Source: Prorocentrum cordatum
Taxonomy: Eukaryota; Sar; Dinophyceae; Prorocentrales; Prorocentraceae
Assembly: GCA_963575745.1 (NCBI GenBank)
Contig: CAUYUJ010000169.1
Span: 53,287-117,286, forward strand
Direction: 5' to 3'
DNA: 64,000 bases
The notes below the pieces were generated by a model, which did not search any database, had not been told where the DNA came from, and worked only from the letters and a program-made list of their open reading frames with translations. The position numbers and the translations under genes are program-made. Positions 786-22,019 of this stretch are shown piece after piece. Positions within the stretch are counted from its first letter, which is position 1. Each line of letters starts with the position of its first letter.

Positions 786-3353
786 ATGGCCCCCGCCAAG
801 CCGGAGCGCCGCCGCTCTTCCAAGCAGCCGCCGAGCTCACGTCCTGCAGCTGAAGGGTCTCTCCTCCAACGCAAACAGGACTGCATTGCAGCTTTCAAGC
901 AAGCGGGGTCTGACCGCCCCACGGCCGCGTACAACGGGCTCGCCGAGCTGAACGCGGACGAGCTGCAGGCCACGTACGACATGCACAAGACCAACACAAA
1001 GAAGCTCGGCAGTGCCTTGATCCGCATGTGTGCCGCCAACCAGATCAGCTACACGCTGGAACACCACCAGCGCAGCAAGCCTAAGCGCATTGGTGGTGAC
1101 ACATCACACCCACCAGCTGCGTCCGCACGTCTTCAGGCTGCGGACGCCCAATTCATTGCCTTGGACCCGGCCTTCTGGAAGGTCCCAGTCCTGGCCGAAC
1201 CCACCTCACTCGATGACGGCAAGACGTACAAGCCCAGCATCAGCCTCCACGACTACGAGAGCGGTGAACGGCTGCTGCAGCACCATCTCGAGCAGGGTAA
1301 GCGTACCACGGGTCAGCTTGCGATTGCTGTCATGGGCCCCAAAAACGACAACTACGTCGGTACCGAGCTCGCCGTCCCCGTGCTGAAGCGTCACCCCAAG
1401 GCGCCCAAAGTGGTCCACACGCACGTCCCCGTGACCGTGTACCAGCTGGGCACCAAGGAAGTCGCCTGCACGGAAAAAGTAGCCGTCGCCACCATCGACC
1501 CTGCCGACCACGTATGCTGGATTCGGGTGACCATACATGAAACCGAAGCCATCGCCGCAGTCCCCTCCAGGCATCAGGCCTTCGAGGATCAGTTTTCGGG
1601 AGGCGCCCCCGTGAACGGTGGTCCACGCGCCAAGGGTCCTTTCCGAGGGGATTCCGCTCCACAGGACAAGGCGCGCCAAAACCAAAAGCACAGGGAGTCC
1701 AAGAAAGATGCTCGCCGCCAGGAGCTCGATAGTCAGCTCCAGGACACCTTCAAGGCCCTCTTCCACGGCAACTTTAAAGCCGTCACCATCCTCGAACCCT
1801 GCAAAAGCCTAGGCAGGTTTGGATCGGGCGTCGGAAAGAGGTCCCTGGCTGCCGCCTTCGGCGTCAGTCTTCAAGCGGTCGACAAGGTCTTGGCGGGTTC
1901 AGGGCAACTCGGCGCCACCTACGACCTCAGCAACGTAGGTGCAGACGAGCCCACTGCAGACAAGTACCAGACCGTGTGGTTCCCTGAGGACCAGCCCATC
2001 ACGATGGCAGATGCGTTCCAGAAGTCGGTGGATTTCAAGGCCCTAGGAGTCGTCAGGCACGGCAAGTCAGGCTTTTTGGGGATCCGTGTTGCACGAGGGT
2101 CAGACGCCGCCAAGGCTGCTGCCGTCAGCATCCGCGGCTGTGAAGCCACCCTCGCCAAGACGCGATACCGCATTACTGGCATTGCGGCACGCCACGCCAC
2201 GCTGACCCAGCTTGCTAAGACTCTCACAGGCCCGTCCGTCAAATGGGACTGTGAGGTCTACCACACCGCCTGGGACCCAGCCACTTCGGCTCAGTTTGCC
2301 TTAGTGCGCGCCCATCGTCCCCCACCCACATATACGGTACAGGTCGCAGGGTGCCCCATCCCGTGGAGCATCACCGAGGCCCCGTTTGCTGAGGTGGTGC
2401 CGAAGAGGGACAACGTTACCATTGTCACCCCTACCACTATCACAGAGCCTGCGACGCCGCCCGCCCGCGGTGGCGGCTTCAGCCCCGCCACGGGCACACT
2501 CCTAACCAAAGCGGCCCAGAGCCCCTACCTCCACGACCTCATGACTGCCACGCCCAAAGGCAAGGGCGTCGCACCGCTCCCGATCCCCAAGGAGGAGCCT
2601 CTAGCCAAGCGCCACCGATCCTCCAGCGGGAAACGCGACGCCACGCCGCACGCAAGATCACACGGCGCCCCAGGCCGCAGCTCCTCTGCACCCCCGCACG
2701 GCACGGATGGAGCTGCCGAGCAGACGGCCGTCCAAGGACCAGGTGGGGACGGTCATGACCCGCAACCTGGCACGGTGGCGGCCGAAGGTGGGGGCCACAC
2801 GGAAGGGCACGCTGACGCAGCCGCCGAGGTACCAGGCGACGTCGAAATCCTATCATCAGAGGATGAATTCAGCGTGGCATCGCGCGAAGTGAACACCCTC
2901 GGCGAACGCTTCGCTATGGCCCCTAAACTGTCACATGCCGCTACGACCCGCATCCAACACATGGAACAACAGCACGAGCTGCTCGCCAACACGGTGGACA
3001 ACATGCAGGTCCAGCTCGCGGGCGTTCTCTCATCCCAGGCCACACTCACGGAACACGTTTCAGGCTTGGAACGGGGGCTTGCCACCGTCGTCACTCAGCA
3101 ACAGACGGCAACTACCGGAGCTGCGGCACTGCGCGGCGACATCCAGGCCCTCCTCGGGCACCTCACGGGGGGTACCATCCACCTGCCCCAGGTGGCCACC
3201 CTCGAAACAAAAAAGGAGGAAGCTGCACCAGTTGCCGATCCCGTGGCGGTCTGCGGGTGGATCGACCAGCCAGGCCAGGTCACCCCAGGGACGGGGCCCC
3301 CAGGGGCTGACAAAGGCAAAGACAAGGGGCGGGTCACACAGGAACCCTATTGA
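786..3353 (+). CDS. LINE-associated ORF1-like protein, coiled-coil C-terminus
   Basis: Long GC-rich ORF of about 855 residues, starting at the first ATG (MAPAKPERRRSS); the frame is open 12 bases further up but only from GTG. The N-terminus is basic, like a nuclear-localisation segment. The middle has no domain I recognise. A Pro/Ser/Lys-rich stretch (roughly residues 590-690) is followed by an acidic patch. A heptad-like coiled coil (about residues 720-800, with repeated L/V/M and Q) comes near the C-terminus. A basic N-terminus plus coiled coil and lack of enzymatic motifs suit a retrotransposon ORF1 or nucleoprotein, but that is inference. A palindromic element at 2463-2495 is embedded in frame and read as GGFSPA. 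It heads the plus-strand chain of ORFs that ends in a LINE tail at 10177. Confidence 0.55.
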   Translation: MAPAKPERRRSSKQPPSSRPAAEGSLLQRKQDCIAAFKQAGSDRPTAAYNGLAELNADELQATYDMHKTNTKKLGSALIRMCAANQISYTLEHHQRSKPKRIGGDTSHPPAASARLQAADAQFIALDPAFWKVPVLAEPTSLDDGKTYKPSISLHDYESGERLLQHHLEQGKRTTGQLAIAVMGPKNDNYVGTELAVPVLKRHPKAPKVVHTHVPVTVYQLGTKEVACTEKVAVATIDPADHVCWIRVTIHETEAIAAVPSRHQAFEDQFSGGAPVNGGPRAKGPFRGDSAPQDKARQNQKHRESKKDARRQELDSQLQDTFKALFHGNFKAVTILEPCKSLGRFGSGVGKRSLAAAFGVSLQAVDKVLAGSGQLGATYDLSNVGADEPTADKYQTVWFPEDQPITMADAFQKSVDFKALGVVRHGKSGFLGIRVARGSDAAKAAAVSIRGCEATLAKTRYRITGIAARHATLTQLAKTLTGPSVKWDCEVYHTAWDPATSAQFALVRAHRPPPTYTVQVAGCPIPWSITEAPFAEVVPKRDNVTIVTPTTITEPATPPARGGGFSPATGTLLTKAAQSPYLHDLMTATPKGKGVAPLPIPKEEPLAKRHRSSSGKRDATPHARSHGAPGRSSSAPPHGTDGAAEQTAVQGPGGDGHDPQPGTVAAEGGGHTEGHADAAAEVPGDVEILSSEDEFSVASREVNTLGERFAMAPKLSHAATTRIQHMEQQHELLANTVDNMQVQLAGVLSSQATLTEHVSGLERGLATVVTQQQTATTGAAALRGDIQALLGHLTGGTIHLPQVATLETKKEEAAPVADPVAVCGWIDQPGQVTPGTGPPGADKGKDKGRVTQEPY
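2463..2495 (+). repeat. ORF-embedded palindromic hairpin (PE1)
   Basis: Outer arms GCCCG/CGGGC and GTGGC/GCCAC flank a GGCT-TC-AGCC core. Lies in the ORF at 786, read as GGFSP. Confidence 0.75.
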
Positions 3354-3835
3354 AGGTGCCTCAGAGAGCCCGCCTCAGCCCTCCGAGGAAGCGCCTTCAG
3401 AGGCATCTCTTCTCACTTCTCGTCGTGCCTCCTCCTTGCTATATCATGTCATTTTTGGCAGCAGCACGAGCAAGCTAGCTGGTGTAGGGACACCTGTCAT
3501 CTTGCTGTGGGTGTGTTTGTTGCAATGTACATGAGCATGCAGGGGTACCTAAAGATGCGTGCTGACATGCAGCTTTTGGCTCATCGCTCGCGCCGCCCGC
3601 CAGGCCTCGCCATCATGTGGCGCCTTGCCTGCAGCCTGGCCCTCCCCTCGCTCGCTGGAGCACACCCGTCTTCAGGAGGTGCGCCCCAGCATGGAGGTGA
3701 GTTTCTCCTGCGACACGCTGAACGTGGGACCCTTTTCTACCTCTACGATGACAGCATCTACAAGTACGATCACTGCACCATTTTGGACCCGATCGTGAAC
3801 GGCACCGTTGCCGCGGGTCCGTGCGGCATAGGCCA

Positions 3836-3871
3836 GGCACACAGTGGCGGCTTCAGCCCCGCTGTTGTGCC
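3836..3871 (+). repeat. ORF-embedded palindromic hairpin (PE2)
   Basis: GGCACA...TGTGCC and CAG/CTG arms around GGCT-TC-AGCC. Read as GGFSP in the membrane-like ORF. Confidence 0.75.
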
Positions 3872-4803
3872 CCGCTATCGCCCTACGGGTCTCACCACCC
3901 CCCTGTGCGCTAGGGGCGAACCCGAGGAGGACCCTGCTTTCTGGCACCTGATGATGATCCGCGCCCGGCTCATACCGTGTGCTGCGGCGTGGCACCAGGT
4001 GAGGACAACCAGGACATGTTCTGGGCATGGCTCGAGGACTGCGTCCCGTACATCCTGGCGACGCTCCATCTGCCACAGTACGATCACCTCTTTCAGGAGG
4101 AGTCTGAGGACACAACCGACGCCCTGCGTCAGCGCACCGCGGTCGACATGTGCGAGGACATCTGGCACAGAGCGGGCCCCGACAGGCGGCGCATCAACCG
4201 CAACCTCACTCGTATCCAGAGCAGCCGCGAGTACGCCACCCGCTACTTTGGCTTCCTTCTGGAATACCAGGGCGCTCGTGCCACTCTCGTCGGCCCTGAG
4301 GCTTTCACGGCACCTTTGCCGCCATACCTCTCACGGGCCCATGCTCTGCTGCCAAGAGGCCTCCCTCCACCCGACCAAGACGCCATTGCGTACCTCGCCG
4401 ACGTGATCCTGCACCAACCGCCAGACATGCTGCCGCTCGTCGAGGCGGAGCTCGCCGCGGCGCCGATGGACGGCACCGATCAGGCCGCAGATGACCCTGT
4501 ATCATGGCTGCTTCAGCACATCGCGGCCAGCGACATCGGCAACGCATCCATGGACTCGTTCCACGCGTCGGAAGATAGCCAGGACGGCATCGATACCCAG
4601 GATCGAGACGGCACGATAGCACCAGGCAGCTCGGCCCAGAGTGACCGCAACAGTGAACCCTACTTTGGGCACACCTCGGGGCAAAGCAGTTCGCCCCACA
4701 CCTCAGCTCAGGCCGACCCCAGCGCTCGGCTCAACGACGCTGAAGGCGTCACTGCCGCTGACGTGCCAAGCCATTACACTGCATCGCCAGCTCATGCCAG
4801 CCC

Positions 4804-4832
4804 GTGCAGTGGCGGCTTCAGCCCCGCTGCAC
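4804..4832 (+). repeat. ORF-embedded palindromic hairpin (PE3)
   Basis: GTGCAG/CTGCAC arms around GGCT-TC-AGCC. Read as GGFSPAA. The arms differ from PE2 but are again self-complementary. Confidence 0.75.
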
Positions 4833-5536
4833 CACTGGCTAGACCTGGACATCCCCAAACCGCAGGCGGCAGCACCACGCCCTTCACCTCCGTGCACCGC
4901 GACAGCGTGACTGACTCCAACTCCAGTGCCACTGACCACGGGCAGGCCGACATCGACAACGATCCCATCGATGATGAGTACCCAGATGCCAGCGGTCCCC
5001 ACGAGCCCCAGCACAGCGCAGCGGCATCACGACACTGTGGCTGCCTCATCTGCCTCTTGGTGGCCACGTACGTCATCGCGATAGCAATGCCGTACAAGGA
5101 CCAGATCGATGGGTACTTGCCGACACCGAGCCGAGACCCCAGCTACAAACAACGACGACGACGCCAAGCGACGGCACCAGGCCCATCGGTGTCCACCACA
5201 CCCCGACGCAAAACGACATACAATGTCACGTCCACATTGAGGGCCACTCTCAAATGGACCAGCGTCAAACTCAGAGATAGCGTCTCGGGCGGAGCCACTG
5301 CAGTCGGGGTCGGCCTCGGGGGTGTCCTTAAATGGGCCAGCGGCAAGCTAGGGGCTATTGCCACGGGTGGAGTAGTGTGTGGTCTTCTACTCGTCGGTGC
5401 CAAACTTCTTGCCCAGGGAGCTGTCGGACACGTTTGAGCCCGCATCTGTGCGCGGGCCCTGGACTCATCCACTGCCCAGTGGTGCCTCCGCTGTTGCCAG
5501 CCGAGCAGGAGGCCGAGGGACGAGGTCACATACAAA

Positions 5537-6064
5537 ATGCCGTGCACGCTCGCCGACGAACACGACGACCAGCATGTGCACGCACTCCGACATCCGCTGC
5601 TACAGGAACACTACGCCGCAGCAGTTGCCGCCGCAGTCGCCGACGTCACCACCGCCACCACCGCCGCCATCGTCGAAGTCACCGCCGCCGTATCGCGAGC
5701 CTCGTCTGTCACACAAAGATCGACCAGCCCGACTCCACGAGACGGCTCCAAGAGCGGCGCCACATTCGGTAACCTACCGACTAACGAGGATGCCACAGCA
5801 CACGGCAGCGACACCGAGGCAAGGGAAACGCGTGAGCGCACCCATGATAGCCCGTGGTCTATCTTCCGACACGCTGACGCTCGTGGTTCATCCCCCGACG
5901 CGGACACCCACCCACCACGACGGCGAGCACGCTATGCATCCCCCGACAGGCCCCAGGCGCCTTCAGGCCCTGGTATGCCTTACACTGCCCTCAAGCCACC
6001 GACACGCAACATACGCAACACCATCCAGCGCGACCCTCGTCCTCCGAGAGGTAGGCGAGAGTAA
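5537..6064 (+). CDS. Unrecognised Ala/Arg-rich ORF
   Basis: About 175 residues, starting MPCTLADEHDDQ. Ala/Val/Thr-rich helix-like stretch (residues 25-55), then polar Arg/Pro/Asp-rich sequence. No domain recognised. It contains the variant hairpin at 5953. May be a real short protein of the composite element, a frameshifted continuation of a neighbour, or chance. Confidence 0.25.
   Translation: MPCTLADEHDDQHVHALRHPLLQEHYAAAVAAAVADVTTATTAAIVEVTAAVSRASSVTQRSTSPTPRDGSKSGATFGNLPTNEDATAHGSDTEARETRERTHDSPWSIFRHADARGSSPDADTHPPRRRARYASPDRPQAPSGPGMPYTALKPPTRNIRNTIQRDPRPPRGRRE
5953..5973 (+). repeat. ORF-embedded palindromic hairpin, variant core (PE4)
   Basis: CCAGG/CCTGG arms. The core is GCCT-TC-AGGC, a swapped base pair compared with GGCT-TC-AGCC, read as APSGPG. 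Confidence 0.7.
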
Positions 6065-6330
6065 GAGCCGAGAAGTCATAGCATTTCGAGTGAAGCTGGT
6101 CGAGGTGCGAGAAGTTCGTGTAAGATGAGTGAGTGTGTCGATTTGGGAAGAATGGAGAATAGGAGTCGATTTGGGAGAGAGTAGGTAACGAGGTTGGAAA
6201 TTTGCGTAGCATTCGACTATGGGGGGAAGTGATCGAGGGTAAGTCAGCTAGCTGAGTGATTGCCCAGTAGCCGCCGAGGAGCATACTTAACGCCCTGTAC
6301 CAAAACGGCTTTGCGCTAGGAAACAGTGGC
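6065..6330. other. Intergenic stretch without a gene
   Basis: AT-richer than its flanks, no convincing ORF, with GAGTGAGTG/GGGAGAGAG purine patches. Nothing else recognised. Confidence 0.4.
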
Positions 6331-7800
6331 GTGTCTACAGAGGACATCAACGACGCTCTACGACTCCACGACCATCCTCGATTCACTCATGATCCAACAC
6401 TCCAAGCGCTGGGGCCGTGGACGGACATCATGCAGAGGCCACCGAACCGCCTCACTTGGTGCTGGAAGACTCGGGCGGGAACTCGGGCGAGACTATCTTC
6501 CCATACCTCACGTGGGACCTCCGCCAACCCATCTCCGACGCGCCCACTGTCTTCTGGCATGGGACCCGCGGCGACCTTGCGGCCCGTCTTGCTGCCAGTG
6601 GAGGGCACCTCTTGCCAGGCCCCCGCCGTGAAGCGAAGGGCCGAACTGGCCCCAACGTTGGCCGCACGTACGCGAGCGTGCACCCTTCGCTGGCCGCGTG
6701 GTACGCAATGCCGCCCCACCCGCCTTACAGTCTCGAAGATGACACCCTCGCGTGGGGACCCATCGCACTCTGGATGTGCGAGGCCACCCAACCACCGCGC
6801 GGGGAAAACAGGCACAACGTTGTGAAAGGGGAGGCCCACGGAGCGCGTCTCATTTACCCTCGGGTCCTGAGCCTCCTCATCCGCATGGAATGGTGCGCCC
6901 CCACAGAAGCTGCTTCCAGGTGCCGTGCCCTACCACACGCCTATGGCATGGGCGACTGCGCGCACGCCCTTCACATCGCTGGCTACGATCATCCAGATCT
7001 CCGTGAGGCGGCTGAAGCTCACGACCAGGAGGCTAGCACCAGGCGCAGACCAGCCATCGCGGCAGCGTGGCCACCGCCGCAGGCACTATACTCGCCAGAG
7101 GCAGCGCGAGTATGGGCCAAACAGCACTACGACACGGAAGCAGCCACCAGGGATGACCCTAACCAGCCCCGCCCACGCGACTCGCTTCACATACTCCAGC
7201 TGGACCCGAAACCACTCATCGACCTGGTGTACACTGGCTTGCAAGCTGTCCCCGTGCGGGGGCACCCTGACGCACGCGGGTCGCGCCCCAGCGGCTCCAG
7301 CCCTGGGGCCGCGTCGGGCCCTCCTCGCACGTACAAGTCAGGCACAGCCTTAGCGTACAGTCCAGACCGCTCATCGACGTCATCTGGAGTCGACGAACGC
7401 CGTACGCCTTCCCTCATCAGCGCGGCCGCCGCCCTCGCCCGAGGCCGTGCCCGTCCACGACGATCTGCCTCTCGCTCGTCACGACAGAGTGACGGGAACT
7501 CCACCTCAGACAACCGCGGCATCGAGACGTGGGAGCACATTGTGACGGAGGAGGAGCCGACTGCCTACCACGTCCTCGCCTACCACGTTCGTGATGTGCG
7601 GTCCCGTGTCAACGCCCCTGGCATCGAGGTCTGGCTCGACCCTGGTGATCACCACGATGGCGCCTACTTACCGTGGGGGACGACAGTCATGGGCTACCGC
7701 GTCATTGACCCTACGGTGGACGGGCGTGACGGCTGGGTCATCCTCCACCATGATCACGGCGACACCACTACTAGCTCTGGGCACCGACCCAAGTCCACGT
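6331..7800 (+). pseudogene. ADP-ribosyltransferase-like ORF (first half of a frameshifted polyprotein)
   Basis: Two frames join. One runs from about 6331 to 6450 (MSTEDINDALRLHDHPRF...). The other is open from 6417 and carries most of the coding sequence. Near residues 45-100 of the second frame is VFWHGT, then a Gly-rich spacer, then GRTYASVHPSLAAWYA. This His-Gly-Thr and Tyr-Ala-Ser arrangement resembles the ADP-ribosyltransferase/PARP-like fold (H and Y of the H-Y-E triad); the third catalytic Glu cannot be assigned safely. A second globular segment (EHIVTEEEPTAYHVLAYHV ... TTVMGYRVIDPTVDG) lies near 7530-7750. Around 7775-7800 the sensible frame moves to that of the 7829 ORF: reading it upstream gives VKGDDSWRTVMVPADMGPQW. 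So this appears to be one protein with at least two indels. The family call is tentative. Confidence 0.35.
7282..7313 (+). repeat. ORF-embedded palindromic hairpin, CC loop (PE5)
   Basis: CGCG and CCCCAG arms pair with CTGGGG and CGCG around GGCT-CC-AGCC. Read as SGSSPG. Confidence 0.7.
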
Positions 7801-7828
7801 TAAGGGGGACGACTCCTGGCGCACCGTC

Positions 7829-10177
7829 ATGGTACCAGCGGATATGGGGCCCCAGTGGATCAGGTGCCATGCCGAGGACGCACGCCTCCCCGCCGAGGTT
7901 GTCCGCACTACAGGCCAATCCTGGTTTGCTGACGTCTGGCCCTTGTGGGATCGCCCGGGACCCCACCCAGACGACCCAGGCACAAACGAGCATGCGCTAC
8001 CGCCTTTACCAGGACGCTGGTCTTGCCTACAGTGTCGATTCCAATGCTGCCAATATTGCGCGGCTCGCCGCAACACACAGCTTGGCACCTCGGGCCAACC
8101 AACGTGCCCAGACTGCGTCCGCAGCGGACTGCGTACACTTATGGACTGGTCCACGGACTACTCGTGCAACAGTTGGACGTGTGCTTACAGCACCAACAAC
8201 AGGGACTCCGACACATGCTGCCTGTCCAGCAGGTGCCCCCACCCCCCCAGGCCACACAACCTTCTCGACGTCCGTGCCACAGGGATGCCGCCGCACATCC
8301 TTGCCCGCCAATTCGGCAACGCGCCAGCCCTTCACGACCTCAAGGAACCCCCCCGAGCGCCTTCAGGCCCCGGGGGGGAACCTCCACAACCAGGGAAAGC
8401 AGGCTACCAGGGTCAATGGTACTTCCCACCGCAGCCGCGGCGCGTCCCCAGGCAGGGACTGCCTGACGGCACAAGGCGGCCACCTGGATTCACAGGAACG
8501 GGGATGCCCGAAGAACCTTCCCTCGACCAACCGCTTTGGAGGGAAGGCTTCGTGCTCTTCAGTCCCCACCAGGCCCTCAAGGAGGAACTCGCCTTCAACA
8601 AGACGGTCCGCCGACCCTACTCCCTAGCCATTACTAACATGTACAGGGATCGTGTCACGGTCAGGACCGTCTGCGAGTTGATCGCTGAGCGCATCCACAT
8701 TACCCGCACCCGTTGGCGAGATGTGGTACTGTACTGGGACGCCGAGGGTGGTCCTGGGCCTCAGGCCCTCGACTACGGCATCGACCTCGGGCTCATCGGG
8801 CCCATCGCGGAGGAGTTCAATCGTCAGGCTGACGCCCTCGCCACAACGGCGGCACGTACTCATAACCTTCCAGACGACATTGTCGAAGCTGCCAAATCAC
8901 GACATCGCCAAGCGACCGTGCTGCATGGAGTCGCTGTCGCCATCTACGAGCGTAGACACCGTACACTCCCCCTCCCACACCGCAGGCCTGGGTTCACAGC
9001 TGCGGAACTCAACAAAATGGAACCAAATCCCCTGCTGTCTGACCAGGCACCACCCGCGGCTGGACCAGACATCCCACAGAACCCGGACGCGCTCTGGGCC
9101 GAGGCCCAACGGGCGATATTCGACGAACAGGAGGACGACCCGTTCGGCTTTGGTGGGGGCCTGGACTTCCTGGGCGACGGGCCAGCCAGCGCCAACCCTG
9201 CCCCGTCGGTTACCCGCACGGCGCCCCCGACTCCGCCATTGAGAGCGGCAGCGCACCCACATGACAACGCCGCTCATTTTCAAGACGCTGACGAACAGGA
9301 GGATGACCTGTTCAGCTTCGGTGGGGGATCGGACGCTTTGGACGACGGACCAGCCAGCGAAAACCCCGCCCCGTCGGGAAACCTCTCGATCCCTACTGCG
9401 ACTCCGTCCCCGAGAGCGATATCGCCCACATACGATGATATCGGCCACCGCCAAGACGCCGACCATGACCTGGGTGACCCCCGCGGACTGAGTGGCATGG
9501 AGGACGCACCGCCGATACCACACGCTGCCGACCATGCCGCCCTACCGAGACGCCAACCTTCTACGCGACCGACCTCAGAACCCTTGCACGGCATCACGAC
9601 TGGTCCCACCGCGCAAACCACTCCGCCCCCCCACCGCCGGCAGCCCGCGGGGGCGGCTTCAGCCCCCCCGCAGGGTACTAAACCAGACAGGCCCTCGTGC
9701 CCCATCCACGCTTCCATCGTTGCTGTGCGAGAGGAAGCGGCTCTCCCGACCTCTCGGGGCGTGGCCCTAGCGGCTCCAGCCCTGGGGTCGCGTCGGCCCC
9801 TCCAGTCACCCTTCAAGGGTGACGGACGTCAGCGTACAGGGACCCGCACTACGCTAGTCCACCATTTGGACAGGCGTACCGAGGACCTCGCCTCTGTCTC
9901 GAGGCCCTCGGCTGCTGGCACTGAGCAGCCACCCCGCACCGACCGCGAAACCGAGCTGTCACAGGCTATGGCTGCCCTCCAGCAGAGGTGCTTAGCTCTC
10001 GCCGCGGACCTCGCCGCCGCCCAAGCTCGTCAAGGCCCTCTTCTCCAGCGCCTCCACAGTGCTGGGCGAGCCTTCGCCGAGCTGCTCACGGCCTCGCCCG
10101 ATGGTGCCGTGCCGACACTCAACATCCAAGCCATGTTGTCATCGTTCCGCGGCGCTCCACCTGGTGCCCCGCGCTAA
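7829..10177 (+). CDS. Cys-rich ORF fused to LINE polyprotein C-terminus (no RT)
   Basis: Open for about 780 residues; the biological start is probably upstream, in the frame of the preceding ORF. Residues about 65-135 are cysteine-rich (CLQCRFQCCQYC, then CPDCVRSG), suggesting a zinc-binding module. The middle is Pro/Arg-rich. At nucleotide 8777 the sequence becomes nearly the same as the minus-strand LINE, entering just before the last RNase H helix (IDLGLIGPIAEEFN.QADALA) and continuing to the common C-terminus through acidic DPFGFGGG and DLFSFGGG repeats and a coiled coil near the end. The catalytic Asp, Glu and Asp of RNase H lie upstream of the junction, so the domain cannot work here. 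The frame stays open across the junction. Either a chimeric element or a LINE tail inserted into another ORF. Palindromic elements occur at 8348, 9644 and 9765. Confidence 0.6.
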   Translation: MVPADMGPQWIRCHAEDARLPAEVVRTTGQSWFADVWPLWDRPGPHPDDPGTNEHALPPLPGRWSCLQCRFQCCQYCAARRNTQLGTSGQPTCPDCVRSGLRTLMDWSTDYSCNSWTCAYSTNNRDSDTCCLSSRCPHPPRPHNLLDVRATGMPPHILARQFGNAPALHDLKEPPRAPSGPGGEPPQPGKAGYQGQWYFPPQPRRVPRQGLPDGTRRPPGFTGTGMPEEPSLDQPLWREGFVLFSPHQALKEELAFNKTVRRPYSLAITNMYRDRVTVRTVCELIAERIHITRTRWRDVVLYWDAEGGPGPQALDYGIDLGLIGPIAEEFNRQADALATTAARTHNLPDDIVEAAKSRHRQATVLHGVAVAIYERRHRTLPLPHRRPGFTAAELNKMEPNPLLSDQAPPAAGPDIPQNPDALWAEAQRAIFDEQEDDPFGFGGGLDFLGDGPASANPAPSVTRTAPPTPPLRAAAHPHDNAAHFQDADEQEDDLFSFGGGSDALDDGPASENPAPSGNLSIPTATPSPRAISPTYDDIGHRQDADHDLGDPRGLSGMEDAPPIPHAADHAALPRRQPSTRPTSEPLHGITTGPTAQTTPPPHRRQPAGAASAPPQGTKPDRPSCPIHASIVAVREEAALPTSRGVALAAPALGSRRPLQSPFKGDGRQRTGTRTTLVHHLDRRTEDLASVSRPSAAGTEQPPRTDRETELSQAMAALQQRCLALAADLAAAQARQGPLLQRLHSAGRAFAELLTASPDGAVPTLNIQAMLSSFRGAPPGAPR
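8348..8378 (+). repeat. ORF-embedded palindromic hairpin, variant core (PE6)
   Basis: C-run plus G arm pairs with C plus G-run arm around GCCT-TC-AGGC. Read as APSGPG in the Cys-rich ORF at 8348-8378; the same core as PE4 with different arms. Confidence 0.7.
9644..9675 (+). repeat. ORF-embedded palindromic hairpin (PE7)
   Basis: CCC-GCGGGGG arm pairs with CCCCCGC-GGG around GGCT-TC-AGCC. Here it is read as GAASAPP, not GGFSP. Its counterpart in the right arm is at 14912. Confidence 0.7.
9765..9787 (+). repeat. ORF-embedded palindromic hairpin, CC loop (PE8)
   Basis: CCCTAG/CTGGGG arms (one G-T pair) around GGCT-CC-AGCC. Read as AAPAL. Counterpart at 14796. Confidence 0.65.
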
Positions 10178-10566: not shown

Positions 10567-10621
<55 letters not shown>

Positions 10622-13965: not shown

Positions 13966-14041
<76 letters not shown>

Positions 14042-14911: not shown

Positions 14912-14946
14912 GCCCTGCGGGGGGGCTGAAGCGCCCCCGCTGGGGC
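14912..14946 (-). repeat. Palindromic hairpin, altered core (PE10)
   Basis: Right-arm counterpart of the hairpin at 9644: GCGGGGG/CCCCCGC arms kept, core changed by one base (GCGCTTCAGCC). Confidence 0.6.
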
Positions 14947-15088
14947 TGCGCGTGGGGAAAATAAGAAATAGAAAGGGCAGAGGAACACGGGAAATAAGGA
15001 AAGGGGGGGGGAAATGCAGAAAGAGGATCAAAAATTGAGTTAGCGGAGTGGGTTCCTAATGATCTTTGGACCAGTCGTGATTGCCTTG

Positions 15089-18000
15089 TTACGAAAAAAA
15101 GTGGTGTGGGGGTCGCTGAGGGGTAGGTCCGCGTGGGAGGGAAGGTTGGCGTCTCGGTGGGGCGGCATGGTCGGCAGCGTGTGGTATCGGCGGTGCGTCC
15201 TCAATGCCACTCAGTCCTCGGGGGTCGCCCAGGTCTTGGTCGGCGTCTTGGCGGTGGCCGATGTCATCGTATGTGGGCGTTATCGCTCTTGGGGACGGAG
15301 TCGCAGTAGGGGTCGAGAGGTTTCCCGACAGGGCGGGGTTTTCGCTGGCTGGTCCGTCGTCCAAAGCGTCCGATCCCCCACCGAAGCTGAACAGGTCATC
15401 GTCCTGCTCATCAGCGTCTTGAAAAGGAACGGCGTTGTCGTGTGGGTGCGCTGCCGCACTCAATGGCGGAGTCGGGGGCGCCGTGCGGGTGCCCGACGGG
15501 GCAGGGCTGGCGCTGGCTGGCCCGTCGCCCAGGAAGTCCAGGCCTCCACCAAAGCCGAACGGGTCGTCCTCCTGTTCGTCGAATAACACCCGTTGGGCCT
15601 CGGCCCAGAGCTCGTCGGGGTCTTGTGGGATGTCTGGTCCAGCCGCGGGTGGTGCCTGGTCAGACAGCAGGGGATTTGGTTCCATTTTGTTTAGGTCCGC
15701 AGCTGTGAACCCAGCCCTGCGGTGTGGGAGGGGGAGTGTACGATGTCTACGCTCGTAGATGGCGACAGCGACTCCATGAAGCACGGTCGCTTGGCGATGT
15801 CGTGATTTGGCAGCTTCGACGATGTCGTCTGGAAGGTTATGAGTACGTGCCGCCGCTGTGGCGAGGGCGTCAGCCTGACAATTGAACTCCTCCGCGATGG
15901 GCCCGATGAGCCCGAGGTCGATGCCCATGTCGCCCCGGTGGCTAGCGACTTTCTCGACGCGGAACATGTTTGGCTTGGCCATGACGCATCGGTGGACCTT
16001 TTCCCAGAGCTCCACGTGCGTGCCCTGCGGTGGTGAGTGTCCGTCGATGATCCTTTGGAAACCGTCAACCACCGCCTGGTTGTCCACGAAGACGTGCACA
16101 GGCCGTTCGGCACATGCCGTGAGGTGGACAATGGCGAGGGTCTCCGCAAGCTGTGCGTTCTGCGTGATGCCGTGAACGCGCGCACTGTAGTTCATGCGGT
16201 GGTCGATGCCGTAGTAGACGCCGTAGCCCGCTCGTGCTAGCAATGGGATGGCTTGGTTGGTGCATGCACCGTCCGTGGCAGCGTAGACCCATGTCCAGCC
16301 AGTGTCGTGGTCAAGGTAGGTGGTGTAGGAGTCCTGGGCTGAAGCCGCAGGATCTCCCTCAGGTGGGGGGCGCGGTATGGGCTGAGGTAGCGGGTCCCTC
16401 GCGAGGTCGGCCTGCAGGTCGAGGAGGGCTGGGTCTTCATCGAAGAGCCCGCAGTGTCTTGCGCGCGGTGGAAGACGGGCCCACTGCTCGTCACTGATGA
16501 GGGTGGTAAGAGGGACTCTTTCGCGGGCCCAGCACTTGCAGTCGCGAACAGTGTGCTCCTGAGTTTCCTCTTCCTCGTCGCAGTAACGGCAGATGGGGCT
16601 GGGGTCAGCGGACGTGTTTGATCGAGATCGTCGCTGTTGGGTGTGGTCCCCGCCCGACAGGTAGTTGAGGAGGAGCGCCAGCTGCCATGCGTTGCATTTG
16701 GCTGCTCCTTTCGTGCGGGCGAGCCACGTGCTGGCGAAAAGGTCGGGGCCCTGTCTGACAGAAGCCAGATGTCCAAGGTCATGACGCCGTGGCTTGATTT
16801 TTCTCAGAAAGGCTCTGCGTTGTGAGGCGCGCAGCATGTGAAGGAAGGCGTTTTGGGGAAGGTTCAGCCAACTGATCTGACAGCCCCAGTCGTCGTACAT
16901 GATGCCAAATGTGGGCCAGGTCCAACGGAGCTGCTGAAGCGTCTGGACAAGTCGTCCAACAGGTCCTCCCCCGAGAAGGGTCTGGACATGGTGTTTGAGA
17001 TCCCTGACGAGACCGCAAAGAGTGGCGTCGCGGTTGACCTGTCGCCGCAGACACAGGAAGACTTCACGCTGCATAATGGCGTCAATCTCCAGGGCGTGTC
17101 CTGGGGCGCACACGGCCATGAGAGTCCAAAACTCGACCCACCTGTTTCCCTTGGGGCGGATAGCCGCCTTGAGGGCATGGTTGTAGGCAGTTTTGACGGG
17201 GCCTGATGGGGCTTGAATGTCAGTGCCTGTGGTACAGACGCTGGCAGCAAGGGAGCGGGCGTGCCGCGCCTTAATACGCATCGGTGATGGGAGCTTGCCA
17301 ATACGCGGCAGACGACTAGTCGCCCTGCGAACACGGGCGTCAGCGGTGGCCGTGAGGTTGAGCGCGGCTGGAGCCGGCGCTGCCTCGGCGTTGATGTAAC
17401 TTCCGACGAGCTTGAAGGAGTCGACCACTCGTAAGGGCCGTTCCGCCAAGGTGAGCTGGGTAACGGCGGTGTGAAGCTCGTCAGTAAGCGCCCACCCCGC
17501 CACTTTTCCAGGATGAATGCGTTGACCAGAAAATCGATCAAACTTGGCGGTTTCATCAAGAGATTTCTGCAACTCGGGCGCGGTGTGGGTAGTGGAGTTG
17601 CTGTCATCAACAAAAGTAGTGCTGAGTGATCGCGGCACGTAACGATGCTGTCTCTTGGTCCAGACGCACATGAGCAGCTTAATGTCGTCCAGGGACCAAG
17701 AGCTTCCCTGGAGGTGACCGTTTGTCCTGGCCAGTTCCTTAGAGTACGCACCGTTCATGCGGATGTAGCGTTTGTGGCGACTGTAGAAGTTTCTGCTGAC
17801 AGTAACGATGTCTTGGGGACACCCCGCGTGAAGCGCAAGGTTAAGGCATATGTCCGTGATGAGATAGTCGAAACACTTCTGTCGGTCCAGGGCAGCTCCA
17901 GCTAAGGGAAGGAGTAAGGCCCTGGCGTGTTCGATGCGCAGGGCAAGAGATGTGCTGACGTCCCCAATGGTAGCTTTGGGGACAGCGCCAAAACTCGTGG

Positions 18001-18424
18001 CGTGGGTCCATCCTTTCCGCCAGTCCGTGAGGCTGCGGTAAGCTGGCGTTTCCCACGCATACATCCAAACGGAAAGCACCGAGAGAAGACGTTGGTCCGT
18101 TGGGAGTTCGCCTCGGCCTTTTCGGAGGCACGGGTTTGGCACGTGGAGGAGGGGTTCTGGGATGGTGCCAGTGCGTTGCATAGCTCGTAGGACGCTGGCG
18201 AAGAGGCGAAGAATGTCGTCGGGTAGCTCCTTTGCCTCCTTAGTAGTCCAGCCGTCCAGTCCCCCCGCGCGGCGCGGTGAACGGGTGCGAATGAAGTGGA
18301 TGAGTTGGTCGTCGGTGAGGTGGAAAGGGGGTAGCTGGTGATGGCGTAGGCAGCTCCTGTTGGTACTCGTCGTAGAAGTCGGCCCACGTCGGCATGGCTT
18401 CGGCGTCGTGTCCCGCACGTGCAC
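15089..18424 (-). CDS. LINE reverse transcriptase / RNase H polyprotein
   Basis: About 1,111 residues open on the minus strand. RT: GGLDGW (54-59), motif A Asp in AALDRQKCFDYL (180), motif B-like NGHLQGSSWSL (234-244), catalytic FVDD (271-274). A thumb-like region follows, then a zinc knuckle CRYC...EEETQEH...C (612-629). RNase H: Asp in ATDGA (718), Glu in LAETLAIVH (761), Asp in VFVDNQAVVDG (781), His in VASHRGD (829), last Asp in FNCQADALA (852). After this comes the acidic repeat region shared with the plus copy. Motifs look intact, so the copy is not very old, but the C-terminal end is disrupted (14406-15088). The endonuclease is encoded just upstream in another frame. The product would reverse-transcribe element RNA at a nicked target. 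The first 20-25 residues of this frame are probably not translated. Confidence 0.85.
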   Translation of the reverse strand: MHVRDTTPKPCRRGPTSTTSTNRSCLRHHQLPPFHLTDDQLIHFIRTRSPRRAGGLDGWTTKEAKELPDDILRLFASVLRAMQRTGTIPEPLLHVPNPCLRKGRGELPTDQRLLSVLSVWMYAWETPAYRSLTDWRKGWTHATSFGAVPKATIGDVSTSLALRIEHARALLLPLAGAALDRQKCFDYLITDICLNLALHAGCPQDIVTVSRNFYSRHKRYIRMNGAYSKELARTNGHLQGSSWSLDDIKLLMCVWTKRQHRYVPRSLSTTFVDDSNSTTHTAPELQKSLDETAKFDRFSGQRIHPGKVAGWALTDELHTAVTQLTLAERPLRVVDSFKLVGSYINAEAAPAPAALNLTATADARVRRATSRLPRIGKLPSPMRIKARHARSLAASVCTTGTDIQAPSGPVKTAYNHALKAAIRPKGNRWVEFWTLMAVCAPGHALEIDAIMQREVFLCLRRQVNRDATLCGLVRDLKHHVQTLLGGGPVGRLVQTLQQLRWTWPTFGIMYDDWGCQISWLNLPQNAFLHMLRASQRRAFLRKIKPRRHDLGHLASVRQGPDLFASTWLARTKGAAKCNAWQLALLLNYLSGGDHTQQRRSRSNTSADPSPICRYCDEEEETQEHTVRDCKCWARERVPLTTLISDEQWARLPPRARHCGLFDEDPALLDLQADLARDPLPQPIPRPPPEGDPAASAQDSYTTYLDHDTGWTWVYAATDGACTNQAIPLLARAGYGVYYGIDHRMNYSARVHGITQNAQLAETLAIVHLTACAERPVHVFVDNQAVVDGFQRIIDGHSPPQGTHVELWEKVHRCVMAKPNMFRVEKVASHRGDMGIDLGLIGPIAEEFNCQADALATAAARTHNLPDDIVEAAKSRHRQATVLHGVAVAIYERRHRTLPLPHRRAGFTAADLNKMEPNPLLSDQAPPAAGPDIPQDPDELWAEAQRVLFDEQEDDPFGFGGGLDFLGDGPASASPAPSGTRTAPPTPPLSAAAHPHDNAVPFQDADEQDDDLFSFGGGSDALDDGPASENPALSGNLSTPTATPSPRAITPTYDDIGHRQDADQDLGDPRGLSGIEDAPPIPHAADHAAPPRRQPSLPRGPTPQRPPHHFFS
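16328..16357 (-). repeat. ORF-embedded palindromic hairpin (PE11)
   Basis: GGAG/CTCC and TCCTG/CAGGA arms around GGCT-TC-AGCC on the minus strand, between the zinc knuckle and RNase H. Read as AASAQ. Confidence 0.75.
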
Positions 18425-20357
18425 GGTACCTGCCCAAGATGGGCTCCCAGGTGTCGACCATCAGCTTCAGCATGTCCTTGGTGTTAGCAACAATGGCGTT
18501 GGCAGGGAGGATGTCGGGGACTTGCGCAGGTGGTGGTTCACGAGGGTGGTCTTCGTCGCTGTCCGTGTCGGGCGAACTACCGTCGCTGGGGCTGAAGCCG
18601 CCAGCTTCGGTGTCAGCGTCGCTGTCGTCCGTGCAAGCTTCGTCAGGTTTACAGGCGTTGGTGTCGCAGTGGAGTTGCGTATCGTCAGGAGTGGTAGGCG
18701 TGCGGAGATACGCCGTGGGCGAGCTGTCAGCAGCCCGTGCGTATATGGCCGCCTTTCGCCCGCTTGGCTCCCGGACGCCCTCAGCCCATATCCTGATGCG
18801 TTCAGCTTTGGCACGGTTCGCGCGTCGCGCCAGCTCCAAGTCGAGGTGTTGGATCAAAACGTCAAGGTGCTCTCCGTGCGGCACTGGCTCGTCGGGGGAC
18901 CAGGCCTCGGGGAAGTCTAGGAGACCCGTGGGGCGCAGCTTGTGGCATAAGAGGCGGGCCGCGGCCCACGTGCAGTCGATGCGCTGCGCGAGGTACGGCG
19001 GGATGGCACGGCAATCCAAATGATGGTGCAGTCCGATGAAACGGAGCTCGCAGAGTTGCCGATGGAGCTTGCGCAGTCGGTTCATGTGTATCGTGGAAGC
19101 TCCGTAGGTGGGGAAGGCGCGGGGGACAACTGGTCGATCTTCGAACGTGGGCGTGAGCCCGTGCATGGTGGGGGGCTTCTTTTTTGGGTGGTCGGACGGT
19201 GGAGGTGGCAGGTCGCGCAGACGGGTGAAATGGCACTCATGACTGGCCTCGTTAGCCAGGGCGAACATGCGCTCCACGTCGTCTCGTGTGTCGGCCTGCT
19301 CCATGCGGTCCTGATATCGCTCAGCGATGAGGGTCCCTAGTGCCTGCAGCTCGTGACCCTCATGAGCTCCATCGTCGGGCGGATAGGGCGTGGGGGCATG
19401 AAGACGTCGGGCCGTATGGTCGAGGCGACTGAGGTCAAGCGTGACCTGCAGGCCAACGTGAGACTTCGCAGGCAAGTCGCGAAGGTAACAGAAGTCGGTG
19501 ACAAGGGATCGCGCCGCTTGGTTGGCAATGATATAGTCGATGCGCGAAGTGCGGGGGCTCTTGGTGAGGCGGTCCCAGTCAGGGATATTGCCGTAAGTGT
19601 GCATGGTGTGGTCTGGTGTGCCCTCAGCAACGTTGAACCATCCGTGCTGCAACATGTGCAGAAGGTGTGGATTGTCGTCAATGTTCGTATTGGCGTCCAT
19701 GCAGATGAAGTAAGGGGCTGAGCCGACCCTAGCGGCGGCGCAGTCAGCGAGCCGAAAAAGAGCTGTGCTGTCTCCTCCAGCAATCCCGTAGAGGCTCGCT
19801 ATGTAGATCCCCGCGGGCCCGTGGTTGTTTCGTCGCCGCCTGTGGCGGTGTTGAGTGCAGAGCGGGAGAAAGACCTCGTGCCATCTTTTCTTGGCCTTGA
19901 GGGCGGCGATACAGGGCGTATTGTCGTCGACAGTGGAGTCGACGATGGCATCCTTAGAGAGAATGGCGACCCCTCCCGAGGCGCCAGTGTTTCCCACAAC
20001 GGTGTGATCAGTGCCGCCGTGGGCAGCTCTGCGATGGGCTCGCGCCAGATCAAGGTCAGGTCCAAGACTGGCGTGGTATCCACCGTGGAGAGGATTGGCG
20101 GCGCTGGTAGCGATGGCTTGCCTAGTCGGCTTGGCGTGTCGGGTCTCCTGCAGTGCTATGACAGCGGCATTGTGGTCGACACCAAGGGCGGTGATGGTTG
20201 GCCAGTTCGCTGAGAGACTGGTGATGTTAAGGCTGACGAGGTGTATGGAGCGACCTGGCCCGTCTCCATCGGTGGAACTGGGGTTTGCACGCCCCGCACG
20301 GTGAAGGTCGGCTTGACCCTCACCCAGGTAGGAGGCTTGGCCACAGTAGGAGCTCAT
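18240..20357 (-). CDS. LINE APE-type endonuclease region
   Basis: The frame reads from MSSYCGQASYLG (ATG at 20357), an assumed start because the frame remains open upstream. Exonuclease-endonuclease-phosphatase motifs in order: ALQETRH (catalytic Glu, near 20140), GGVAIL, CMDANTN (Asp/Asn, near 19695), SRIDYIIAN (Asp, near 19530) and SHVGLQVTL (Ser-His, near 19450). It would nick target DNA for target-primed reverse transcription. A linker with GGFSPSDG and an acidic stretch follows. Reading frame changes near 18350-18390: WADFYDEYQQEL is followed in the next frame by LRHHQLPPFHLTDDQL of the RT ORF. One indel, or possibly programmed frameshifting, must join EN to RT. The frame ends at 18240. 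Confidence 0.8.
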   Translation of the reverse strand: MSSYCGQASYLGEGQADLHRAGRANPSSTDGDGPGRSIHLVSLNITSLSANWPTITALGVDHNAAVIALQETRHAKPTRQAIATSAANPLHGGYHASLGPDLDLARAHRRAAHGGTDHTVVGNTGASGGVAILSKDAIVDSTVDDNTPCIAALKAKKRWHEVFLPLCTQHRHRRRRNNHGPAGIYIASLYGIAGGDSTALFRLADCAAARVGSAPYFICMDANTNIDDNPHLLHMLQHGWFNVAEGTPDHTMHTYGNIPDWDRLTKSPRTSRIDYIIANQAARSLVTDFCYLRDLPAKSHVGLQVTLDLSRLDHTARRLHAPTPYPPDDGAHEGHELQALGTLIAERYQDRMEQADTRDDVERMFALANEASHECHFTRLRDLPPPPSDHPKKKPPTMHGLTPTFEDRPVVPRAFPTYGASTIHMNRLRKLHRQLCELRFIGLHHHLDCRAIPPYLAQRIDCTWAAARLLCHKLRPTGLLDFPEAWSPDEPVPHGEHLDVLIQHLDLELARRANRAKAERIRIWAEGVREPSGRKAAIYARAADSSPTAYLRTPTTPDDTQLHCDTNACKPDEACTDDSDADTEAGGFSPSDGSSPDTDSDEDHPREPPPAQVPDILPANAIVANTKDMLKLMVDTWEPILGRYRARAGHDAEAMPTWADFYDEYQQELPTPSPATPFPPHRRPTHPLHSHPFTAPRGGTGRLDY
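18585..18605 (-). repeat. ORF-embedded palindromic hairpin (PE12)
   Basis: Short GCT/AGC arms around GGCT-TC-AGCC on the minus strand. Read as GGFSPS. Confidence 0.6.
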
Positions 20358-20377
20358 GGCGTTCCCATGGATTAGCT

Positions 20378-20401
20378 TGACCGGGGCTGAAGCCGCCGTC
20401 A
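20378..20401 (-). repeat. Palindromic hairpin (PE13)
   Basis: TGAC/GTCA arms around GGCT-TC-AGCC just upstream of the EN start. In the open frame it reads LTAASAPV. Confidence 0.65.
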
Positions 20402-20419
20402 GGCCAGAAATATAGGCGG

Positions 20420-22019
20420 GACACGGTCGGCATTGCGCCAGGGGGGGTTCATAAATGTCAGTATAAATGTTACGAAAATTCCTCCTCACTCCAGTACCGT
20501 AGGGGACGAGGGGAGGAGAGGTGAGACGGCAGCAGAGGGGGAGGGAGGCGACTCCTCGATCCGTCCTGCCGAGCACAAAAACAAAAGCGAACCAGCGGCG
20601 GCGGCTAGGCGCGGCGGCGGCACAACGCACGCGCATGTACTGCGCACGCGACACCGCTGGTCCCTCCTGCGGTGGCGCGCCCGCCCCGTCAGTATCTTGA
20701 TGAGCAGCATCTGGTGGAACAGCTCCAGCAGCACGGTCGGAGGCCTGGCGCTGGGCCTCTTCCATGCCCGCTGCCGTGAGGCCCACGTTGCGGACAGGGC
20801 TGATTCCCCGCGGGGCCGCCGCAGCCGCAGCAGCCGAGGTGGCGGGGGCTCCGCCCCGACTCTGAGGGGAGAGCGGTGAGCCCCCGCCGAAACCCGCCAC
20901 AAGGTTCTTGACACGGTACTTGTTCTTGAACGGGTCGAAGGTTGGCGCCTCGTCGATGGGGACGATCACGCGGGTGAGCAGCGGCGGCTCGTGGTCCGTG
21001 GACGGCGTCGGCGAGAGGTCGACCTGGCCAGGATCAATGACGCTGGCTCCGAAGCGTGGCACCACTTCGGGGGCTCGGCCATCGGCCTGAGTCTCGCGAG
21101 GCGGCGAGCTCGGGGAGCTCCCTGGGGCCTTGCGTGAACTGTGGCGGCTGCAGGTCCTGCTGCGCGGGACGCGCCCGCCCGTGTGGCGGTCGCGTGGCGA
21201 GGTCGCCTGCGCATTAGCACGCTCGGAATCCGCCCTGCTCGGGGATCGGATCGGCGCCGCGCAGGGTGATGGGCTGGGCTGGCGAGGGGCGCTTATGCCG
21301 CCTTCCGCCGTGGCTGTGGCCTGGTCGGGGTCGACCGCGTCGGGGCGGGGGCTGACGTGGTGGGCGCTTCCCTCGCTGTGCCGCGGGGAGGCGCTGTGAT
21401 GCGCCTGGATGTGCGTGAGGACGAGCGGGGTAAGCGGCTGCCTCCCCCGCTCAGGTGGGGCAGGTTTTGCCTGGGCAGGGCGCAGTGCTGCAGCTACGTT
21501 TGGCGGGGGCGTGTGCTGGCGAGGTTGCCAAGCGCGCACGTTCGCATCACGCCATCCTTCGGGGCGCCCAGCCCTGCCACGGTTTGTTGCAGCCCCCTGG
21601 GCTGAAGCCGCAGGGGTTATCACTGCGGGCTGGTTTCTGGAGGAGCCATCCTGTCGGCCTGAGTAAAGGCCCCAGGCGCGCGTAGACCCTGGCACTGGCG
21701 AGGTGGCCCTTAGGGCCTGCACGGGTGCACGCGGGTAGCCGATGACCGCTGGGTGTACCCTAGCATGGGGGGCGTGGCCGTAGCTGGAGGCGGCTGCTCC
21801 AGCAGCCGCGGGCCTGGCGCCTATGGGGCCACGGTAGTAGGCGGCAACCCCGTCGTAGGCCGTGTTGCCGCCTGTCGGGACTCGCGCCGGGGAGCGGTAG
21901 CGTGGCGTGCCGTGCTGTCCTGCGTCACGTTTGTCCCGCTGCTGGATGCGCTGCTGGTGCTGTTGGTGACGCTGCCAGTCGGCTCTCGAGAGGGGACGGG
22001 TGTCGGGGAGGATGGTGGG
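20420..22019 (-). CDS. ORF1-like Pro/Arg/Ser-rich region of the LINE, cut by gap
   Basis: The frame of the endonuclease remains open upstream to the gap, encoding a basic, Pro/Ser/Arg/His-rich low-complexity protein with an Ala run (near 20810-20840) and a more ordered segment PTFDPFKNKYRVKNLVAGFGGG (near 20880-20960). No RNA-binding domain is recognised. Position before EN suggests ORF1 or the N-terminal part of a single ORF. Around 20420-20600 the composition looks non-coding (polybasic, then LVPYGTGVRRNF), so the ORF1/ORF2 boundary may lie there. The 5' end is unknown because of the gap at 22020. Confidence 0.4.
21593..21616 (-). repeat. Palindromic hairpin (PE14)
   Basis: CCCCTG/CAGGGG arms around GGCT-TC-AGCC on the minus strand. 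Read as TPAASAQG. Confidence 0.7.

What the first reader, a model, noticed from the sequence alone, without database searches (positions are those of the whole stretch)
2463..21616. Family of about 14 small palindromic elements embedded in ORFs, in different reading frames
Seen: a core GGCT-TC-AGCC (or GGCT-CC-AGCC, GCCT-TC-AGGC) at 2463, 3836, 4804, 5953, 7282, 8348, 9644, 9765 (+) and 14796, 14912, 16328, 18585, 20378, 21593 (-). At every site the flanks differ yet pair with each other (TCCTG/CAGGA, CCCCTG/CAGGGG, TGAC/GTCA, GGCACA/TGTGCC, CCCCAG/CTGGGG). Even the core changes in a paired way (GGC..GCC to GCC..GGC). Translations differ (GGFSP, AASA, APSGPG), so conservation is of DNA or RNA, not protein. 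All lie in the LINE-like units; I saw none elsewhere. Known analogies are Rickettsia palindromic elements within genes and yeast mitochondrial GC clusters. Inference: a mobile hairpin or RNA signal tolerated inside ORFs, not described to my knowledge.
Basis: partly seen in the sequence, partly recalled or inferred. Interest (0 to 1): 0.87.

Follow-up and report, generated by a model that had tools for sequence, protein, structure and literature searches.

The report
Evenly spaced RNA hairpins in retrotransposon
One family of jumping genes in a dinoflagellate alga carries about fifteen copies of a small bulged hairpin, one roughly every 1.2 thousand letters, written inside its protein genes and strongly conserved, which looks like a repeated tag by which its RNA is recognised.

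Summary
Each element is a hairpin: paired arms of any sequence, an unpaired C (rarely A) on the 5' side, then an upper stem GNCU/AGN'C with loop YC. A blind Watson-Crick scan for this geometry finds only these in 64 kb. A generalised motif gives 14 hits in the window, all on the LINE sense strand; 200 shuffles of the LINE units average 0.015. The genome (4.13 Gb; fits Prorocentrum cordatum) holds a ~16 kb LINE in head-to-tail arrays; one unit read has 15 hairpins at 13 nearly equidistant stations (mean 1221 nt, CV 0.17; 0 of 1,000,000 random placements as even). Hairpin bases change about ten times less than flanking coding sequence, third codon positions included, and arms covary. A non-autonomous family sharing only its ends with the LINE carries its own hairpins. 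Flanking DNA and a sister LINE unit have none. So this is not a tolerated mobile palindrome but a selected, repeated cis signal, probably in RNA; I think a multi-copy tag for RNP assembly or recognition (inferred). Searches found nothing like it in print.

The parts
774..10536 (+). LINE copy 1 (internally deleted: ORF1 and ORF2 region, EN/RT missing, 3' end present)
   Evidence: 8777-9561 and 9629-10619 match the - unit at 95.5% and 90.7%; hairpins h6 and h12 are 1296 nt apart here but 7635 nt apart in the C102 unit
14000..22304 (-). LINE copy 2 (5' part missing: EN, RT, RNase H, 3' end)
   Evidence: Exo_endo_phos E 9.2e-5, below Pfam's gathering score; RNase H1 match E 1.2e-4; P0001 homologue 46%; RT motifs FVDD and NGHLQGSS read by eye
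1122..1144 (+). hairpin h0 (new; upper stem GUCU/AGGC)
   Evidence: also C102:14202, C93:53648, C123:6658
2468..2490 (+). hairpin h1
3661..3683 (+). hairpin h1b (degraded in this copy; upper stem intact at C102:16741, C93:51112, C123:3910)
   Evidence: sequence
3842..3864 (+). hairpin h2
4807..4829 (+). hairpin h3
5952..5974 (+). hairpin h4 (GCCU/AGGC upper stem)
7286..7308 (+). hairpin h5 (UCCA loop; similar to h13)
   Evidence: its predicted fold in a 47-base context is a different one
8352..8374 (+). hairpin h6 (one A.C mismatch at arm pair 2)
9648..9670 (+). hairpin h12
9765..9787 (+). hairpin h13
   Evidence: intact at 20 of 20 sampled places, out of the 40 best-scoring 3' ends
21594..21616 (-). 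hairpin h7
20379..20401 (-). hairpin h8 (lower stem bulged)
18584..18606 (-). hairpin h9
17360..17382 (-). hairpin h10 (new; within the RT ORF, 6-residue gap in homologue P0001)
16331..16353 (-). hairpin h11 (just before RNase H)
14918..14939 (-). hairpin h12, copy 2, lost one G (25.1 bits)
   Evidence: model match 14911-14945
14796..14818 (-). hairpin h13, copy 2

Best explanation
The hairpins are a repeated cis-acting recognition signal in the sense-strand RNA of one dinoflagellate LINE family and its non-autonomous partners. Shown: a defined structure (free but paired arms, 5' unpaired C, GNCU-YC-AGN'C cap), covariation, about ten-fold nucleotide constraint, near-equal spacing of about 1.2 kb along a ~16 kb unit, sense orientation only in the window, sharing with a non-autonomous family whose interior is unrelated, absence from the flanking DNA and the one sister LINE unit examined. 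Inferred: it acts as RNA; a protein binds the bulged cap, in the way phage coat proteins bind bulged operator hairpins (recalled); about 13 evenly spaced sites let it load or fold the long RNA into an RNP and mark which RNAs, autonomous or parasitic, the element's machinery takes. The element's ORF1 protein is the first candidate binder.
For: Geometry and specificity. Covariation: A3; A4 with 17 distinct hairpins, 95.9% of cells paired against 70.9% shuffled, score 0.607 against 0.136, 0 of 500. Changes at one site: h1 arms CCCGTGG/CCACGGG against CCGGTGG/CCACCGG, h2 CACACAG/CTGTTGTG against CACGCAG/CTGTCGTG. In partner elements one related hairpin module occurs as GGGTGC/GCACCC, GGGTGC/GCACTC and GAGTGC/GCACTC, i.e. 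G-C, G.U, A-U. Constraint: core 7 of 1283 and inner arms 7 of 1165 changed against 751 of 13951 in far flanks, Fisher P 1e-20 and 2e-18, 117 alignments; third codon positions 5 of 815 against 542 of 6520. Spacing. Orientation: LINE sense 14, antisense 0. Partners: 6 hairpins in C2:406.6-413.7 kb; 6, 4 and 8 in L073-L075. Negative: the window outside the LINE units on both strands, L028, L070-L072 and sister LINE C3524 (16.2 kb) have none.
Against: No expression or binding data. A sister LINE in the same genome (RT and RNase H region blocks of 86-339 residues 40-48% identical, an EN-side block 34%; arrayed at ~15.7 kb) lacks the motif in the one unit read, so such signals are not needed for mobility in general. 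ORF1 could not be modelled (mean pLDDT 41.9), so no binding fold is shown. The RNA-versus-DNA evidence is modest: over distinct sequences the six inner arm pairs are 352 Watson-Crick, 33 G.U, 7 A.C, 28 other, but counted by site only five have a common U.G pair (all U 5', G 3', arm pair 3: h1, h2, h3, h13, na4) against one common A.C (h6); sense folds are more stable in only 10 of 17. One isolated copy (C48:617863, L049, 34.2 bits) lies in DNA without nucleotide similarity to the LINE.
Confidence: 0.5

Rival explanations
1. RNA signal for a host process rather than for RNP assembly: nuclear export, stability, or suppression of premature processing of a very long RNA, needing one site per kilobase or so (as U1 snRNP does in other eukaryotes; recalled).
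For: The spacing of about 1.2 kb over the whole unit and presence in partners with unrelated interiors fit equally well.
Against: A sister LINE of similar unit length does without.
Confidence: 0.22
2. DNA-level or cDNA-level signal: a cruciform or single-strand hairpin used in cDNA synthesis, integration, replication or recombination, for example to keep the head-to-tail arrays.
For: Elements lie in arrays; near-palindromes can form in DNA; the unpaired base fixes a strand in DNA too.
Against: Common U.G against A.C and a G-C, G.U, A-U series favour sense RNA, modestly; the sister LINE is arrayed without hairpins.
Confidence: 0.12
3. Mobile palindromic element of the Rickettsia RPE or yeast GC-cluster sort, inserted and tolerated in linker-coding DNA.
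For: Sites encode small, linker-like residues; P0001 lacks 6 residues at h10; h5/h13, h12/na2 and na2/na3 share flanks.
Against: Arms differ almost completely between sites while the cap is fixed, the reverse of copied elements; even spacing; about ten-fold constraint; same positions in the copies examined; 1 of 22 isolated core hits is a full hairpin.
Confidence: 0.08
4. Translation signal: ribosome pausing, frameshifting or bypassing at each hairpin.
For: All 15 hairpins of the C102 unit lie in open frames of at least 250 codons.
Against: Those frames run through the hairpins without a shift, and all three registers relative to the cap are used; I saw no shared slippery or take-off sequence beside the caps.
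Confidence: 0.08

Closest known systems
Dispersed packaging signals / coat-protein operator hairpins of ssRNA viruses (MS2, satellite tobacco necrosis virus; start of the STNV abstract PMC6475782 seen, the rest recalled)
   Same: Many short stem-loops with a common loop and free arms spread over a coding RNA; the MS2 operator also has one unpaired base below a short capped stem (recalled)
   Different: A cellular LINE, not a virus; one strict cap rather than degenerate motifs; regular spacing of about 1.2 kb; no binding protein known
3' stem-loop of stringent-type LINEs recognised by their RT (start of abstract PMC5135761 seen)
   Same: Cis RNA hairpin in LINE RNA, shared with non-autonomous partners
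   Different: There a hairpin in the 3' UTR; here about 15 along the whole element, inside ORFs
Rickettsia palindromic elements (listing only; details recalled)
   Same: Palindromes inside ORFs in several frames
   Different: RPEs share a long conserved sequence and sit in many unrelated host genes; here only a 10-nt cap is shared and sites are fixed in one LINE lineage and its partners
Dinoflagellate introner elements (PMC10666404, passages)
   Same: Inverted repeats in the same species
   Different: Introners are introns with 8-20 nt inverted repeats near both ends; these are ~23-nt hairpins that stay in the reading frame
Yeast mitochondrial GC clusters and byp elements (recalled; listing only)
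   Same: Small hairpins inside genes
   Different: Organellar; byps are skipped by ribosomes, these leave the frame open

Membership tests
Mobile palindromic element (RPE-like) | Copies share sequence along their length, not only a cap | tested here: not met
   Mean identity of 25+25 flanking bases 0.34 over 17 sites; only na2/na3 exceed 0.62
Mobile palindromic element (RPE-like) | Scattered in unrelated genes | tested here: not met
Mobile palindromic element (RPE-like) | Empty sites in relatives | tested here: inconclusive
   P0001 lacks 6 residues at h10; at h1 P0007-P0009 have unrelated residues of about the same length
LINE 3' recognition stem-loop | Located in the 3' UTR | tested here: not met
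   Hairpins spread over the whole unit, within open frames
LINE 3' recognition stem-loop | Shared with non-autonomous partners | tested here: met
   na family
Dispersed packaging or RNP assembly signal | Many copies of one motif along the element, on one strand | tested here: met
   15 sites in the C102 unit, sense strand only
Dispersed packaging or RNP assembly signal | Bound by the element's RNA-binding protein | not testable with these tools
   ORF1 model too poor
Non-LTR retrotransposon (host element) | Endonuclease, RT and RNase H domains | tested here: inconclusive
   Exo_endo_phos E 9.2e-5 but 22.7 bits against cut-off 24.5, RNase H1 E 1.2e-4; no Pfam RT hit, RT judged from motifs by eye; RT model failed
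Known Rfam family | Match at gathering score | tested here: not met
   0 matches in the window

The most novel reading that the evidence does not exclude
A retrotransposon lineage has evolved a ruler-like series of identical-cap RNA hairpins, one per ~1.2 kb, overlaid on its ORFs in all three frames, that functions as a virus-like multi-site assembly code for a 16-kb RNA; its non-autonomous parasites have built the same code into unrelated sequence to ride on it.
Probability: 0.4. Interest if true: 0.92.

Novelty: new variant of a known kind. Interest (0 to 1): 0.8.

Why it matters
How LINE proteins choose their own RNA, and how parasites exploit this, is an open question; the signals I know of are few and terminal (recalled). 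A repeated, evenly spaced, covarying hairpin inside the ORFs would be a new design for RNA selection and a rare case of a structural code imposed on the protein genes of a cellular element. It comes with natural controls in one genome: partners with it, a sister LINE unit without it. It also gives a short motif that can be used directly as bait for the binding protein.

Tried and rejected
Mobile palindrome: rejected on arm diversity, spacing, constraint. Frameshift or bypass: frames are open on both sides. Rfam: nothing at gathering score; weak antisense matches (mir-598, 28.2 bits against gathering 69, E 0.012; PYLIS_2, 19.9 against 36) taken as chance. Other loop and bulge geometries: none enriched among those tried. 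ORF1 and RT models: too poor for a fold search, none run. ORF2: a 1268-codon part had no homologue among 7990 scored candidates. Relatives in viral and prokaryote contigs: none confirmed. L049: isolated hairpin, left unexplained. I first read frame B as unused; h0 uses it. My notes and one search give 14923 for the damaged h12 of copy 2; 14933 is right.

Results against my reading: the sister LINE unit lacks the motif; the U.G/A.C test rests on few sites; one search counts sequences, not events; my selection allowed G.U pairs, so its G.U excess is biased and not used; allowing G.U in the blind scan adds 6 hits of other sequence; 8 of 135 site copies have an altered cap (three further h5 rows were really h13 and are left out). 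The 3'-end relatives of the na family were sampled at three places only. Station merging joins two close pairs; unmerged, 272 of 1,000,000 random placements are as even. A3 and A4 sites were chosen partly because they pair.
Full report
WHAT IS THERE. Every reported site is a hairpin with one geometry: 5' arm, one unpaired C, a four-pair upper stem, two loop bases [T/C]C, and the complementary 3' arm. The cap reads C-GGCT-YC-AGCC or C-GCCT-TC-AGGC; later scans add GTCT..AGGC (a U.G pair), GTCT..AGAC (U-A) and, in partner elements, A for the unpaired C. Predicted RNA folds of 14 window sites in 47-base contexts show three pairs above the unpaired C with a UYCA tetraloop at 13; 7292 folds otherwise. 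Upper-stem pair 2 occurs as G-C, C-G, U.G and U-A; the other three pairs of the cap do not vary in the 17-site set.

IS IT CHANCE. A scan for any sequence with this geometry (4-bp stem, 2-nt loop, any single 5' unpaired base, at least 5 Watson-Crick arm pairs) gives 7 hits in 64 kb, all of this family; allowing G.U in the arms gives 17, 11 of them family. In the two LINE units the Watson-Crick scan gives 7 hits against a mean of 0.05 in 40 dinucleotide shuffles; the 14 other 5'-bulged geometries printed gave 0 to 3, the hits being the same hairpins. The generalised motif with paired arms gives 14 hits in the window, all on the LINE sense strand; 200 shuffles of the LINE units average 0.015, their antisense gives 0, and window 22120-64000 gives 0 on both strands, including another stretch at 49-55 kb that looks LINE-like by eye (its two tested ORFs have no Pfam hit). 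On alignment A3 93.6% of cells pair against 73.0% shuffled; on A4 (13 LINE and 4 partner sites) 95.9% against 70.9%, covariation score 0.607 against 0.136, 0 of 500 shuffles. One caveat: A3 and A4 sites were chosen partly because they pair.

THE ELEMENT. The window belongs to a 4,128,499,153-base assembly of 21,875 contigs whose longest contig seen is 3,562,531 bases. Prorocentrum cordatum is reported as 4.15 Gb, maximum scaffold 3.56 Mbp, 59.7% GC (PMC10666404, passages), so I take it to be that species (inference). The core 11-mer occurs 15,054 times against 7,418 for its reversed control, with a repeating ladder of distances. In C102 two units lie head to tail at 16,050 bases, 94.7% identical over 13.7 kb. 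A unit starts after a (CT)n run and ends in another. The window's + unit is an internally deleted copy, the - unit a 5'-incomplete copy; the window thus shows two partial views of one element. A first look finds 1565 candidates for its 3' end, of which 40 were scored.

SPACING. One C102 unit has 15 hairpins: 14202, 15547, 16741, 16922, 17888, 19033, 20147, 21214, 22291, 23505, 25298, 26521, 27550, 28849, 28966 (23505, with a bulged lower stem, comes and not from the stricter scan). Joining the two close pairs leaves 13 stations with gaps of 1029-1793, mean 1221, CV 0.17; none of 1,000,000 random placements is as even. Unmerged, 272 of 1,000,000 are.

SELECTION. For h1-h13, 117 alignments to one template copy (rows over 99.9% identical or not reaching well to both sides of the site dropped) give 7 changes in 1283 cap bases and 7 in 1165 inner-arm bases, against 751 in 13,951 far-flank bases. 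At third codon positions it is 5 of 815 against 542 of 6520. The constraint is thus on the nucleic acid. Of 135 site copies in nine fetched regions and the window, 127 keep the cap. Of 20 places sampled among the 40 best-scoring 3' ends, 20 hold an intact h13. Frames relative to the cap: GFS/GSS at h1, h2, h3, h5, h9; RLQ at h0; ASA/APSG/APA at h4, h6, h7, h8, h10-h13.

PARTNERS AND CONTROLS. Between two LINE copies in C2 lies an element sharing 58 bases at the 5' end (100%) and about 420 at the 3' end (88%) with the LINE, with an unrelated interior. It has six hairpins with arms of their own, though na2 and na3 resemble h12. All 40 candidates scored for its 3' end match, out of 1806; three sampled ones carry 6, 4 and 8 hairpins. 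Among them a related hairpin module shows G-C, G.U and A-U at the same arm pair. The covariance model R1 over 224.5 kb of loci gives 105 matches at E up to 0.034: 104 in LINE or partner elements and one in L049 (the 14 training sites match by construction). Neighbouring DNA (L070-L072, 26 kb, and L028, 9 kb) gives none up to E 1. A sister LINE found through homologue P0001 has blocks of 86-339 residues in the RT and RNase H region 40-48% identical to ours and one of 117 residues at 34%; its unit (16.2 kb read) has no motif on either strand, two unrelated antisense hits in the blind scan, and no other enriched hairpin.

RELATIVES ELSEWHERE. ORF1 homologues from metagenomes keep the residues that the h1 cap would encode, GGFSP in P0003 and P0006 and GGSSP in P0004 (which fits the other loop, TCC), and SARLQ at h0 in P0003-P0006; P0005 does not reach h1; P0007-P0009 have neither. 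RT homologue P0001 lacks six residues at h10.

MECHANISM. Free but paired arms plus a fixed, bulged cap is the pattern of a protein-binding RNA hairpin (general knowledge). Regular spacing, presence along the whole unit, and presence in partners that share little but the ends point to a signal that must be met repeatedly along the RNA. I favour RNP assembly and self-recognition by an element protein (0.5), then a host export, stability or processing signal (0.22), a DNA or cDNA role (0.12), translation (0.08), mobile palindrome (0.08). That it acts as RNA is inferred from the sense orientation, common U.G pairs at five sites against A.C at one and the G-C/G.U/A-U series; it is not proven.

LITERATURE. 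Searches for dinoflagellate LINE hairpins, LINE packaging signals, covarying hairpins in non-LTR coding regions and the P. cordatum genome showed nothing of this kind; I saw listings and starts of abstracts, and passages of PMC11453091 and PMC10666404. Most subscription papers and preprints are not held.

Noticed in passing
G000:C102:13700-29740, C21, C2, C3524: The ~16 kb LINE stands in head-to-tail arrays, units lying between (CT)n runs where I looked (C102, C2), as if units insert into each other's (CT)n tails; the sister LINE in C3524 is arrayed too (~15.7 kb).
   Followed up: partly
window 10400-14100: The two LINE copies are convergent and share an inverted duplication of 3' ends plus tandem repeats of roughly 150 bp (matches 85-96% identical).
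   Followed up: no
G000:C2 about 406650-413650; L073-L075: Non-autonomous element family with its own long, low-complexity ORFs (up to 986 codons in C2) and similarity to the LINE mainly at the ends.
   Followed up: partly
G000 places: Some copies of this LINE have very long open frames around the RT (up to 4350 codons), suggesting polyprotein-like ORFs.
   Followed up: no
L010/L011 (C102:16605-22931): A second ORF of about 2000 codons lies between ORF1 and the EN/RT ORF; a 1268-codon part from another copy found no homologue.
   Followed up: partly
P0005: A database protein 99% identical to part of the window's ORF1 is filed under a Myxococcales MAG; probably dinoflagellate DNA in a bacterial bin.
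   Followed up: no
L049 position 4963 (G000:C48:617863): One isolated hairpin with seven paired arm positions and the exact cap in DNA without nucleotide similarity to the LINE.
   Followed up: partly
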